NCBI RefSeq assembly: GCF_024228675.1 | Contig: NZ_CP100461.1 | Coordinates: 2,911,398-2,975,397 of the forward strand | DNA: 64,000 nt | Reading direction: 5' to 3' | Source: Salinigranum marinum | GTDB taxonomy: Archaea > Halobacteriota > Halobacteria > Halobacteriales > Haloferacaceae | Part shown: positions 18,770 through 51,402 of the stretch, one piece after another | Layout of the letters: each line of letters opens with the position of its first letter | How positions within the stretch are numbered: position 1 is the stretch's first letter | The notes under the pieces: generated by a model | The model's input: the letters and a program-made list of their open reading frames with translations, nothing else | Database searches by the model: none | What the model was told of the DNA's origin: nothing | Position numbers and translations under genes: made by a program

Positions 18770-18907
18770 GACCGGGGTTGGAGACGGAGGCTCATAAGCC
18801 GTGGCTCGTCTCGGCTGACGTCGCTGGGGAGTACCCTCCGTCTCGAGTTCGTGGCGACCCGTCCATCCCAGAGGAGGAACGGTAGACGACAAGAGCAGCC
18901 ACTAGCG

Positions 18908-18960
18908 CGGGTATACCACACCCTCCCCAGCCGACTTGCTCACTCGTCCCTCGCGCGTGA
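18908..18960 (-). repeat. Dispersed intergenic element, copy C
   Basis: Read on the minus strand, this stretch runs GCGCGAGGGACGAGTGAGCA and then AGTCGGCTGGGGAGGGTGTG. It shares that core with copies at 33945 and 49829, but lacks about 26 internal bases. One end merges with the long hairpin at 18953-18991. It lies in a 339 bp gap (18770-19108) with no convincing gene. Confidence 0.75.
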
Positions 18961-18991
18961 GTCGCCGACTCCGGTCGGCGACGTCACGCGC
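18953..18991. repeat. Long hairpin (17 bp stem, one bulge, TCCG loop)
   Basis: Arms GCGCGTGA+GTCGCCGAC (18953-18969) and GTCGGCGAC+TCACGCGC (18974-18982, 18984-18991) pair perfectly around the loop TCCG, with only G18983 unpaired. It sits about 120 nt downstream of the glucokinase stop and touches dispersed-element copy C. It could be a transcript 3' structure or part of the element itself. Confidence 0.75.
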
Positions 18992-19108
18992 CACCGCGGG
19001 ACACAGCGCTCCCCGCGATCGTGCGGGGCGACCGTCGATTCCGCGCGGCCTCACAGCCGTGTGCGGTCGTCGATCCCGCCTGCGGAAACACGCACGAGCC
19101 TGCCAGAC

Positions 19109-32925: not shown

Positions 32926-33810
32926 TTACGCCGCGTCGTCCGGCTCCGCCTCCCGACGCAACAGCACGGGCACGGACGAGCTCCGGAGGATCTTGGTGGT
33001 CACTCCCCCGAGCACGGCCCGGCTGAAGTCGGTCTCGCCGTGGACCCCGACGGCCACGAGGTCGATGTCGTGGTCCCCGACGTACGAGCGGATCTCCCGG
33101 TAGGGCCGGCCGTGTGCGACCGAGCGGGTCACCGAGTCGATCCCGGCCGTCTCCGCTGCGTCGACCGCTTCGGTCATGATCTCCTCCGCCCTCGCGTCGA
33201 GTTGGTCGCTCGCGACGACCGAGCGGACGTCGAACCCGAGGCTCGCCGTCTCGACGACGTGCAGGAGGTGTAGCTCCGCGCCGGTCTCGCGTGCGACGTC
33301 GATCGCCGACCGGAGCGCCAACCCCGCCGCGGGACTGCCGTCCGTGGGGACGAGAAGCGCCCGCGGCGGGTAGACGAACTCCCGGTCCTCGTCGGGCGTG
33401 ACGGCCACCACGGGCGCCTCGACGGCACCGATCACTCGCTCTGTGACGCTCCCGAGGAGGACGCGTGAGAGCCCACGTCGGCCGTGGGTCGGCATGACCA
33501 CGAGATCGATCGCGTACTCGTCCGCGTAGTCGACGATGGTCTTCACGGGGTCCCCCTGGAGCACCGCCGAGACGGTCGCGACGTCTCGTTCGGCCGCCCG
33601 GGCGGCCGCCTCGTCGACGATCTCCTGCCCCTCGCTCTCGAGCACGTCGACGACCTGCCCGCCGATCCGGGTGAGGCTGTCTTGGTTCGTGTCCGCGACG
33701 TTGAGCACGTGGAGCGTCGCGTCGTGTCCGGCCGCGACGTCGACGGCGTACGCCAGCGCCTCGGCGGCCACGTCGCTTCCGTCGGTCGGAAACAGTATTC
33801 GACTGTACAT
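32926..33810 (-). CDS. Universal stress protein with two UspA domains
   Basis: 294 residues made of two UspA domains. Domain 1 starts MYSRILFPTDGSDVAAEALA and ends at VVMPTHGRRGLSRVLLGSVT. Domain 2 starts ALLVPTDGSPAAGLALRSAI and ends at VAVGVHGETDFSRAVLGGVT. Both have the G-x2-G-x9-G(S/V/G) ATP-binding region, which is complete only in the first (GSVTE). The ATG at 33810 follows a TATA element at 33835. A 218 bp gap separates its stop from the EamA gene, with no gene visible. Confidence 0.93.
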   Translation of the reverse strand: MYSRILFPTDGSDVAAEALAYAVDVAAGHDATLHVLNVADTNQDSLTRIGGQVVDVLESEGQEIVDEAAARAAERDVATVSAVLQGDPVKTIVDYADEYAIDLVVMPTHGRRGLSRVLLGSVTERVIGAVEAPVVAVTPDEDREFVYPPRALLVPTDGSPAAGLALRSAIDVARETGAELHLLHVVETASLGFDVRSVVASDQLDARAEEIMTEAVDAAETAGIDSVTRSVAHGRPYREIRSYVGDHDIDLVAVGVHGETDFSRAVLGGVTTKILRSSSVPVLLRREAEPDDAA

Positions 33811-33834
33811 ACGATGACATGGCCGGCCGGCGGG

Positions 33835-33840
33835 ATATAT
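33835..33840 (-). promoter_or_regulatory. TATA element of the double-UspA gene
   Basis: ATATAT (same sequence on both strands) lies 24 bases before the ATG at 33810 and points into that gene. Confidence 0.7.
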
Positions 33841-33944
33841 CGACAGGGTGCGTCCGGTGTGAGGCGCGTCAGCGCGCGCCGAGGGACGACGAGCAATGAG
33901 GCGGTTGGCGTGTGCTGGCGCGGCTCCGACCGCGCCCAGGCGCG

Positions 33945-34010
33945 CGAGGGATGAGTGAACGAGCGAACGAAGTGAGCGAGTGAGCGAATCGGCTGGGGAG
34001 GGTGTGGCGT
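33945..34010 (+). repeat. Dispersed intergenic element, copy A
   Basis: GCGCGAGGGATGAGTGAACG, a purine-rich GAGCGA/GTGAGCGA tract, then AATCGGCTGGGGAGGGTGTG. A GCGCGG..CCGCGC hairpin-forming stretch precedes it near 33921-33938, and a GCCCTGGCGG palindromic stretch follows at 34014. The core recurs at 18908 and 49829. It occupies the 33811-34364 gap together with the 28 bp tandem array; no gene is visible in that 554 bp. Confidence 0.75.
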
Positions 34011-34045
34011 CACCGCCCTGGCGGCTGCCTCGCCGCACGCGTCTC

Positions 34046-34325
34046 GACCGATCTCGTCGTCCCCGGTGAATCAGACCGATCTCGTCGTCCCCGGTGAATC
34101 AGACCGATCTCGTCGTCCCCGGTGAATCAGACCGATCTCGTCGTCCCCGGTGAATCAGACCGATCTCGTCGTCCCCGGTGAATCAGACCGATCTCGTCGT
34201 CCCCGGTGAATCAGACCGATCTCGTCGTCCCCGGTGAATCAGACCGATCTCGTCGTCCCCGGTGAATCAGACCGATCTCGTCGTCCCCGGTGAATCAGAC
34301 CGATCTCGTCGTCCCCGGTGAATCG
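34046..34325. repeat. Tandem array of ten 28 bp units
   Basis: Ten head-to-tail copies of GACCGATCTCGTCGTCCCCG followed by GTGAATCA fill exactly 280 bp. The copies are identical except the last base of the last unit (G instead of A). There are no spacers, so it is not a CRISPR. The unit length is not a multiple of three and a TGA falls in frame every 84 bp, so it is not coding. ACCG at one end of the unit and CGGT further on are complementary and could form small stems. It lies between the double-UspA gene and the PUA gene. Confidence 0.95.
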
Positions 34326-34364
34326 GGCGAGGAACGCCGCCGATCTCCGAACGTCCGTCTCGGT

Positions 34365-34844
34365 CTAGATCGACAGTTCGAACAGGTCGTCGCCGACGTG
34401 GTGGACGCTCTCGACGACCTTGCCGCTGTCCCCGAGCATCTCCGACCCCGGAACCAGGGCGCGACCGATGGCCAGCACTTTCCCGTGGGTCTCCTCGGCG
34501 ATCGAGACCAGGTCGCCCCCGTCGATGGCCTCGTCCGCGTCGACGATGCCGGGCCGCATCACGTCCGCGCCGCCGGAGACGAACGAGACCGCGCCGGCGT
34601 CGACGGTGACGACGTGTTCGGTGGGCGGGTGTGCGTTCGCGCCGGTGACGGTGAGGAACGGCTCGTCGTCGACGTACATCACGGCGGGTGATCCGTCGAC
34701 GAGCACGACGTCGAACGCGCTCCCGGCGAGGTCGACCTTCTCGAACGTGTCGCCGTCGAGGTCCACGCCCGTGCGGCGCTCGATGGTCTCGCGTAGGTCG
34801 CGGATCTCGTCGCTGCGCAGGTGGTGGCGGGACTTGACTTGCAT
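34365..34844 (-). CDS. PUA-domain RNA-binding protein
   Basis: 159 residues. An N-terminal pre-PUA segment (MQVKSRHHLRSDEIRDLRET) leads to a C-terminal PUA domain: TEHVVTVDAGAVSFVSGGAD, VMRPGIVDADEAIDGGDLVS and HGKVLAIGRALV. This is the layout of archaeal MCT-1/TIGR00451-type proteins related to the PUA part of Tma20, which bind RNA or the ribosome. The ATG at 34844 is preferred over upstream in-frame codons because the MQVKSRHHL start is conserved in the type. The stop lies 40 bp from the tandem array. Confidence 0.88.
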   Translation of the reverse strand: MQVKSRHHLRSDEIRDLRETIERRTGVDLDGDTFEKVDLAGSAFDVVLVDGSPAVMYVDDEPFLTVTGANAHPPTEHVVTVDAGAVSFVSGGADVMRPGIVDADEAIDGGDLVSIAEETHGKVLAIGRALVPGSEMLGDSGKVVESVHHVGDDLFELSI

Positions 34845-49828: not shown

Positions 49829-49945
49829 GGCGCGCGAGGAGCGAGCGAACGGAGTGAGCGGGTGACCGCGCGAGGGATGAGCGACCGAGCGATCGCAGGG
49901 AGCGATGGAGCGAATCGGCTGGGGAGGAGGTGGCGGAACCACCCT
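49829..49945 (+). repeat. Dispersed intergenic element, copy B
   Basis: GCGCGCGAGGAGCGAGCGAA, a purine-rich tract, GCGCGAGGGATGAGCGACCG, then AGCGAATCGGCTGGGGAGGA and GGTGGCGGAACCACC. It shares the end segment AATCGGCTGGGGAGG with copies A and C, and the GGTGG..CCACC arms at its right end form a hairpin. It lies in the 345 bp gap 49687-50031, which has no visible gene. Confidence 0.72.
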
Positions 49946-50031
49946 GGCGCCCGCTTGACGACCGGACGCGCTATCGCTCACACGACGACCGGACCGGGAG
50001 TTATCCGGGTGGCCCGCGTGCTGTGACACGC

Positions 50032-51402
50032 ATGACGACAGCGGGGGACACGGGGGCGGTCGACGAACGCGACGGCCGAGACGACCGAGCCGGCGACGAC
50101 GAACCAGAAACAGGAACCGAAGTCCGAGAGCGCCACGTCGTGACGGTCTTTCTCCGCAACGGGGGCGAGGTGTTGCTCCTCCGGCGGAGCGACGAGGTGG
50201 GCACCTACGCCGGGCTGTGGGGTGGCGTCTCGGGCTACGCCGAGGGCGACCCCGACGCGGCGGCCCGGTGGGAGATCGACGAGGAGACCGGGCTGGGCGA
50301 CGCCGTGACGCTCGTGCGGCGCGGGGATCCCGTCGCGTTCACCGACGGGACGCTCGGGATCCACTGGGTCGTCCACCCGTTCCTGTTCGACTGCACGGAG
50401 CGGGCGGTCGACCCGAACGAGGAGGTGCGAGCGACGACGTGGGTGCCACCGACGGTGATCCTGCGCGGGGAGACCGTCCCCGAACTGTGGACCGCCTACG
50501 ACCGCGTGCGGCCGACCGTCGGATCGGTGGCGGCCGACACGGAACACGGCTCGGCGTGGCTCTCACTGCGGGCGCTGGAGGTGCTCCGAGACGAGGCGGG
50601 ACGCCGAGCGGCCGGGCGCGGGACCGACTGCGAGCCCGAGGGACCGGACGGCTGGGACGCGGTGGCGGCGACCGCACGGGAGTTACTCGACGCGCGGCCG
50701 AGCATGGCCGCCCTGGCGAACCGGGTGAACCGCGCGATGAGCGACGCCGACGAGGAGACGGCGGCCGCGGTCGAACGCGCCGCCCACGCCGGCATCGGAC
50801 GCGCGCTCGACGCCGACCGGGAGGCGGCGGCGGCGGCCGCGGAGCGGGTCGCCGGCGAGACCGTGCTCACGCTCTCGCGCTCCGGGACCGTCGAGCGGGC
50901 GCTCTCGTCGACCTCCTCCGGGCCGAACCGCGTCTACGTGGCGGAATCACGCCCCGCCCGCGAGGGCGTCGGCGTCGCCGAACGGCTCGCCAGCGAGGGC
51001 GTCGCCGTGACGGTCGTCACCGACGCGGCGGTCGCGCACGTGCTCGCCGAGCGGGCGATCGACAGGGTGGTCGTCGGCGCGGACACCCTCTTGCCCGACG
51101 GGAGCGTTCTCAACAAGACCGGCACCCGCGGGGCGGCCATCGCGGCCGCGAACGAGGGCGTCCCCGTCGACGCCGTCGCGGCGGCGGACAAGATCGCGAC
51201 GGCGGCGACCGTCGCCGGCGAGACCGGCCCCGGCGAAGCGGTGTACGACGGCGACGCCGCGATCGACGTGGAGAACCCGACGTTCGACCACACGCCCGCG
51301 GCGTTCGTGACGGGCGTCGTGACCGAGCGCGCCGTCCTCGACGCCGACGAGGTGTCGGAGGTGGCCGACGAGTATCGAGCGCTGTCGGCGTGGCAGGGGT
51401 GA
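50032..51402 (+). CDS. NUDIX hydrolase fused to an eIF2B-like domain
   Basis: 456 residues. The N-terminal NUDIX domain (about 35-190) has the box GYAEGDPDAAARWEIDEETG, in which the usual Arg before Glu is Trp but the metal-binding acids remain. The C-terminal half (about 215-456) is an eIF2B-alpha/beta/delta or ribose-1,5-bisphosphate isomerase fold, with TVLTLSRSGTVERALSSTSS and VVGADTLLPDGSVLNKTGTR. The catalytic Cys of the isomerase (expected where SRSGT stands) is missing, although the Asp region GADTLLPDG is kept. A TTATCC element lies about 33 bp before the ATG. Role unknown; nucleotide-sugar sensing is a guess. Confidence 0.9.
   Translation: MTTAGDTGAVDERDGRDDRAGDDEPETGTEVRERHVVTVFLRNGGEVLLLRRSDEVGTYAGLWGGVSGYAEGDPDAAARWEIDEETGLGDAVTLVRRGDPVAFTDGTLGIHWVVHPFLFDCTERAVDPNEEVRATTWVPPTVILRGETVPELWTAYDRVRPTVGSVAADTEHGSAWLSLRALEVLRDEAGRRAAGRGTDCEPEGPDGWDAVAATARELLDARPSMAALANRVNRAMSDADEETAAAVERAAHAGIGRALDADREAAAAAAERVAGETVLTLSRSGTVERALSSTSSGPNRVYVAESRPAREGVGVAERLASEGVAVTVVTDAAVAHVLAERAIDRVVVGADTLLPDGSVLNKTGTRGAAIAAANEGVPVDAVAAADKIATAATVAGETGPGEAVYDGDAAIDVENPTFDHTPAAFVTGVVTERAVLDADEVSEVADEYRALSAWQG

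What the first reader, a model, noticed from the sequence alone, without database searches (positions are those of the whole stretch)
34046..34325. Ten-copy 28 bp tandem array, near-perfect, in a haloarchaeal intergenic gap
Seen: ten head-to-tail 28 bp units in exactly 280 bp, with only the last base of the last unit changed. Such identity implies recent expansion or active homogenisation. It has no spacers (not CRISPR) and no open frame. The left flank joins the unit at its exact first base, so the array seems to have grown from one 27-28 bp seed. Inference: a replication-slippage minisatellite, perhaps a protein-binding array or a partition-like iteron set. It lies beside dispersed-element copy A, so the whole 33.8-34.4 kb gap is repeat-rich.
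Basis: partly seen in the sequence, partly recalled or inferred. Interest (0 to 1): 0.62.

Follow-up and report, generated by a model that had tools for sequence, protein, structure and literature searches.

The report
Minisatellite abutting a mobile hairpin element
The ten-copy 28-base repeat is real and found only in this salt-loving archaeon; it is probably one of many unrelated short tandem arrays that grow, mostly on one side, next to copies of a mobile hairpin-forming DNA element in this genus, so it looks like a side-product of that element rather than a binding site or replication origin.

Summary
Confirmed: ten head-to-tail 28-bp units at 34046-34325, nine identical, the tenth differing only in its last base. 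They lie between a universal-stress-protein gene and a PUA-domain gene in a Salinigranum chromosome. The unit occurs nowhere else in this genome or in 391 other Halobacteriales genomes (3 mismatches allowed). The three congeners carry genes in this gap, and neither array nor element. The array starts 22 bp past the 3' end of a ~120-bp dispersed element that has covarying stems (not in Rfam), dozens of copies per genome, presence/absence differences between species, and head-to-head doublets. With this copy excluded, 14 of 99 Salinigranum element copies have an unrelated non-coding tandem array beginning within 60 bp of their 3' end (0.8 expected) and 2 of their 5' end; generic hairpins show no such excess. 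A second perfect 28-bp x 8.6 array sits at another copy's 3' end in the same genome. Best reading: a recent minisatellite produced by local tandem amplification at the 3' edge of a mobile structured repeat, with no host function. Slippage versus mobilisation-coupled duplication is undecided. Iteron, CRISPR and binding-array readings are not supported. The association appears limited to Salinigranum (1 array in 38 copies from two other genera).

The parts
34046..34325 (+). 28-bp x 10 tandem array, unit GACCGATCTCGTCGTCCCCGGTGAATCA; last base of last unit G
   Evidence: unique in own genome and in 392 Halobacteriales genomes
33905..34023 (+). dispersed structured element (copy A); its 3' end points towards the array
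   Evidence: nhmmer E=1.8e-27; many copies per congener genome; covarying stem
34024..34045 (+). 22-bp spacer between the element's modelled 3' end and the first unit
   Evidence: dist 22; sequence
34326..34364 (.). 39-bp right junction between array and PUA-gene stop
32926..33810 (-). universal stress protein gene (two Usp domains)
   Evidence: Pfam Usp 3.8e-61; orthologues 67-78% identical in congeners
33835..33840 (-). TATA-like box of usp, about 25 bp from the ATG, between usp and the element
   Evidence: similar sequence at the same place in G001 and G002
34365..34844 (-). PUA-domain protein gene
   Evidence: Pfam PUA 1.1e-15; 86-88% identical in congeners

Best explanation
The array is a recent, lineage-specific, non-coding minisatellite. 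It arose by local tandem amplification of whatever 28-bp sequence happened to lie just beyond the 3' end of a mobile, hairpin-forming dispersed element. In Salinigranum this element repeatedly seeds such arrays, with unrelated units mostly of 17-42 bp, preferentially at its 3' edge. SHOWN: the array; its uniqueness; absence of element and array at this locus in three congeners; covarying stem of the element; enrichment and 3' polarity of unrelated arrays beside it; lack of enrichment beside generic hairpins. INFERRED: that the element's 3' end provokes duplication (polymerase pausing or template slippage at its folded strand, or duplication during its mobilisation), that unequal exchange or slippage then raised the copy number and kept the units identical, and that the array has no host function.
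For: Array exact and unique. In the independent set of 67 element copies, 10 have arrays within 30 bp against 2.7 expected, and 17 within 100 bp against 5.4. Pooled, finding excluded: 14 of 99 within 60 bp of the 3' end and 2 of the 5' end, 0.8 expected per side, sign test p=0.002. Non-coding space is alike on both sides. Second 28-bp x 8.6, 100% array at -2 bp from a 3' end in the same genome (L282). At one locus with the element in opposite orientations in two species, each has its array on the element's own 3' side, with unrelated units (L265/L247). Generic hairpins: 5 observed against 3.5 expected. Covariation at 9 of 16 pairs. By my count, array-bearing copies in the own genome point with the fork in 5 cases and against it in 6, so polarity follows the element, not the fork.
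Against: Most element copies (about 84%) have no array nearby, so the element is not sufficient. Two other genera with the same core show 1 array in 38 copies, so the effect is not a property of the core alone. In the 1.6 Mb of this genome examined systematically the enrichment is modest once the finding is dropped. No strain series shows an array forming. The gene caller was home-made, and element copies are related to one another, so p-values are approximate.
Confidence: 0.68

Rival explanations
1. Mobilisation-coupled: the array belongs to a variable 3' tail of the element, and tandem copies are made when the element is copied or inserted (single-strand or rolling-circle intermediates, or reverse transcription of a transcript running past the element), not by later slippage.
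For: 3' polarity; C-rich, G-poor tail for about 200 bp beyond the 3' end even in copies without arrays; extra DNA at occupied sites extends beyond the element on both sides; close pairs always head-to-head, making 3' ends the outer borders.
Against: No transposase or reverse transcriptase is tied to the element; Y1 transposase and TnpB genes do not lie beside the copies by position. Arrays range from perfect to decayed, as in-place slippage would also give.
Confidence: 0.2
2. Ordinary replication-slippage minisatellite whose place next to the element is coincidence.
For: Unique-sequence satellites are common in prokaryotes: about 40% of archaeal satellites are unrelated to any other (PMC6749651). 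Only a small part of the genome's arrays lie beside the element.
Against: Independent enrichment and polarity, and a second 28-bp near-perfect array at another 3' end.
Confidence: 0.1
3. Functional protein-binding array controlling usp (or the PUA gene).
For: It lies 235 bp upstream of usp; multimeric sites can tune promoters (general knowledge).
Against: Unit unique in 392 genomes; congeners keep usp and its TATA-like box without array; a structured element and spacer intervene.
Confidence: 0.05
4. Replication or partition iterons.
For: Direct repeats of this size and regularity occur as iterons (general knowledge).
Against: No Rep, Orc or Par gene near; Orc1/Cdc6-type matches on this chromosome are 220 kb or more away; no copies on the secondary replicons.
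Confidence: 0.02
5. Assembly artefact in copy number.
For: 280 bp exceeds short-read length; reads not available.
Against: 4.9-Mb genome in 4 contigs; similar arrays in three other assemblies of the genus.
Confidence: 0.04

Closest known systems
Prokaryotic minisatellites / VNTRs (Subirana & Messeguer 2019, PMC6749651)
   Same: Head-to-tail non-coding units, near-identical, unique sequence, recent expansion
   Different: Most haloarchaeal satellites in that survey have repeat lengths that are multiples of three, in coding regions; this one is non-coding with a period not divisible by three, and belongs to arrays polarised on a dispersed element
REPINs / BIMEs (REP doublets of bacteria; PMC3116915, PMC2817692)
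   Same: Dispersed, intergenic, hairpin-forming, non-autonomous; pairs in inverted orientation
   Different: Core about 120 nt with alternating 2-bp and GA steps; no RAYT transposase linked; unrelated tandem arrays at the outer ends are not part of those descriptions as far as I know
SMRs and PATEs of Haloquadratum (PMC3119063)
   Same: Transposase-free mobile repeats of haloarchaea; that paper also records opposite-orientation repeats at one site (SwitchRepeats), strain differences in tandem copy number, and deletion-coupled insertions
   Different: Sequence relation not tested; no tandem arrays tied to their ends in the passages read
Minisatellites inside or beside eukaryotic Helitron-type elements (from memory, not checked)
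   Same: Arrays close to a terminal hairpin of a mobile element
   Different: No helicase or Rep protein here; different domain of life

Membership tests
Minisatellite / VNTR | Head-to-tail non-coding units of about 10-100 bp with high identity | tested here: met
Minisatellite / VNTR | Copy number varies between strains | not testable with these tools
   only one genome per species held; congeners lack the array altogether
CRISPR array | Repeats separated by unique spacers | tested here: not met
   units contiguous at 28-bp steps
Iteron / partition array | Adjacent to replication or partition genes | tested here: not met
   flanked by Usp and PUA genes; Orc1/Cdc6-type matches 220 kb or more away
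Iteron / partition array | Bound by a cognate initiator or ParB-type protein | not testable with these tools
   needs a binding assay
REPIN / BIME (for the adjacent element) | Hairpin repeats occurring as inverted doublets | tested here: met
   7 of 7 close pairs head-to-head; most copies are single
REPIN / BIME (for the adjacent element) | Linked RAYT (Y1) transposase | tested here: inconclusive
   five Y1 matches in the genome, compared with element positions by eye only; none adjacent to a copy
Known structured RNA family (for the adjacent element) | Match to an Rfam model | tested here: not met

The most novel reading that the evidence does not exclude
The dispersed element is a mobile structured (RNA or single-strand DNA) unit whose mobilisation writes unrelated tandem duplications into the DNA just past its 3' end, an element-driven minisatellite generator that explains where many non-coding satellites in Salinigranum come from.
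Probability: 0.25. Interest if true: 0.75.

Novelty: new variant of a known kind. Interest (0 to 1): 0.48.

Why it matters
The array alone is an ordinary minisatellite. Its setting matters more. If unrelated tandem arrays are repeatedly born on one defined side of a structured mobile repeat, the origin of prokaryotic satellites can be studied directly in a culturable archaeon, because the likely seed sites and the side are predictable. It also flags an apparently undescribed family of covarying dispersed elements shared across haloarchaeal genera.

Tried and rejected
(1) Relatives of the unit: none in the own genome beyond the array, 391 other Halobacteriales, plasmids or viral contigs. (2) Rfam match: none. 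(3) Transposase/TnpB next to element copies: none seen by position. (4) Generic hairpin effect: not enriched. (5) More room on the 3' side as the cause of polarity: rejected. (6) Fork direction as the cause of polarity: 5 against 6, no bias, with the origin placed at about 3.17 Mb from the best Orc1 match and the GC-skew sign change. (7) Same effect in two other genera: 1 array in 38 copies, not supported. (8) Array folding: less structured than shuffles. (9) Literature by sequence or concept: no haloarchaeal report found.

Full report
OBSERVATION. The array is exactly as described: TRF gives 34046-34324, period 28, 10.0 copies, 100% matches. A pattern search finds ten contiguous copies, nine perfect and the last differing only in its final base, with none expected in shuffles. 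It has no spacers and contains no ORF.

WHERE IT IS. The window is part of a 4.0-Mb chromosome in a 4.9-Mb, 4-contig genome. One congener, G003, coincides in contig length and position with Salinigranum salinum, so the genus is Salinigranum. The array lies between a two-domain universal stress protein gene (32926-33810, minus) and a PUA-domain gene (34365-34844, minus). A TATA-like box at 33835-33840, about 25 bp from the usp ATG, is matched by similar sequence at the same place in G001 and G002, so the array, 235 bp upstream, is outside the core promoter.

UNIQUE TO THIS GENOME. The 28-mer with up to 3 mismatches occurs only in this array in its genome and in none of 391 other Halobacteriales genomes. 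Plasmids and viral contigs hold none. In the three congeners the usp-PUA gap is filled by other sequence: about 1.0 kb with what looks like a PhzF-type gene in G001, about 1.5 kb with RidA-like and PhzF-like genes in G002, 7.7 kb with several genes in G003 (those gene names are from sequence recognition, not a database search). Neither array nor dispersed element is at that locus there. So the present content, element plus array, differs from all three relatives and is best read as a change in this lineage.

THE NEIGHBOUR. Directly left lies a copy (33905-34023, plus strand) of a dispersed element with 14-45 matches per Salinigranum genome at up to about 80-85% identity. In 45 aligned copies, 9 of 16 predicted pairs have both-side changes that keep the pair, up to 22 sequences at one pair. 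The best-supported stem has 2-bp steps alternating with GA/GA, for example GGCCACGAGCGAACGAAGTGAGCGAGTGGCC. No Rfam family matches. A single copy does not fold better than shuffles, so the structural evidence is covariation. Copies are present or absent at orthologous sites, and sometimes in opposite orientation at the same site. All seven close pairs are head-to-head. Matches occur in 16 of 25 Haloferacaceae genera sampled, some of them weak.

THE ASSOCIATION. Other copies also have unrelated tandem arrays at their ends. I tested this with TRF arrays in non-coding DNA, using a home-made hexamer gene caller. In 1.6 Mb of this genome, 4 of 32 copies (this one included) had an array within 30 bp against 0.56 expected (score >=50). 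In an independent set of 67 copies from four genomes, 10 had one within 30 bp against 2.7 expected, and 17 within 100 bp against 5.4. Pooled with the finding dropped (99 copies; score >=60), arrays begin within 60 bp of the 3' end in 14 and of the 5' end in 2, with 0.8 expected per side from element-free intergenic DNA (sign test p=0.002). Several thresholds and distances were tried; the direction is the same in all. Space is alike on both sides. Units are unrelated, mostly 17-42 bp, from 100% identical to decayed. The closest parallel is a perfect 28-bp x 8.6 array with a different unit, at -2 bp from the 3' end of another copy in this genome (L282). At the locus shared by L265 and L247 the element is in opposite orientation in two species, and each array lies on its own element's 3' side. 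Strong perfect hairpins outside the element show no excess (5 against 3.5). Counting by hand, array-bearing copies in this genome point with the replication fork in 5 cases and against it in 6, taking the origin at about 3.17 Mb.

LIMITS. In two other genera only 1 of 38 copies has an array. There the core is followed by a different conserved stretch with GGGACTGAAAGGGGC. The effect therefore belongs to the Salinigranum form or lineage. Most copies have no array. In Salinigranum the 3' flank is C-rich on the element strand for about 200 bp, also in copies without arrays, which may mean the real element has a long variable tail.

MECHANISM. Shown: position, polarity, element-specificity, uniqueness. 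Inferred: something about the element's 3' end provokes tandem duplication of the adjoining sequence, and slippage or unequal exchange then expands and homogenises it. Gene conversion in polyploid haloarchaea would help, but that is general knowledge, not tested here. Two versions remain: in-place slippage at a folded strand, and duplication coupled to mobilisation. I favour the first slightly because arrays span all stages of decay and occur at single copies, but the evidence does not separate them.

KNOWN KINDS. The array meets the definition of a minisatellite. The 2019 survey (PMC6749651) says satellites in Halobacteria are predominantly gene segments with periods in multiples of three. 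The array fails the CRISPR definition (no spacers) and the location criterion of iterons. The element resembles REPINs, SMRs and PATEs (PMC3116915, PMC3119063), but membership is not shown. No paper linking tandem arrays to the ends of such elements was found; the library lacks most subscription journals.

VERDICT. Observation confirmed; minisatellite reading right; iteron and binding-array readings not supported; the real interest is the polarised association with a structured mobile repeat.

Noticed in passing
window 49866-49949 (+) and 50061-50108: A second element copy with a weak 18-bp x 2.6 repeat about 110 bp past its 3' end; a further copy lies at 18901-18996 (-).
   Followed up: partly
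L282:3984-4348 (own genome C1, about 2.18 Mb): Element copy with a perfect 28-bp x 8.6 array (CGATCGACGTGCACGAGTCCAGTCACAC) directly at its 3' end, the closest parallel to the finding.
   Followed up: yes
L329-L388 (two other genera, G107 and G205): The element core is followed by a conserved stretch with GGGACTGAAAGGGGC and often a distal AAGCACCGCAGGAG, suggesting a longer structured element there that Salinigranum has lost or changed.
   Followed up: partly
L265/L247 and L252/L277: At orthologous loci in different species the element is present in opposite orientations.
   Followed up: partly
3' flanks of 117 element copies: C-rich, G-poor composition on the element strand for about 200 bp past the 3' end, also in copies without arrays; G-rich patch 160-220 bp upstream.
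   Followed up: partly
window 33811-34364 versus L129, L130, L131: The usp-PUA gap holds different genes in each congener (about 1.0, 1.5 and 7.7 kb), a site of gene turnover.
   Followed up: partly
own genome: 46 matches to the two-domain universal stress protein, a large paralogue set.
   Followed up: no
L275:4196-4336 (S. salinum C2): A perfect 33-bp x 4.3 array about 75-100 bp on the 5' side of an element, an exception to the 3' rule.
   Followed up: no
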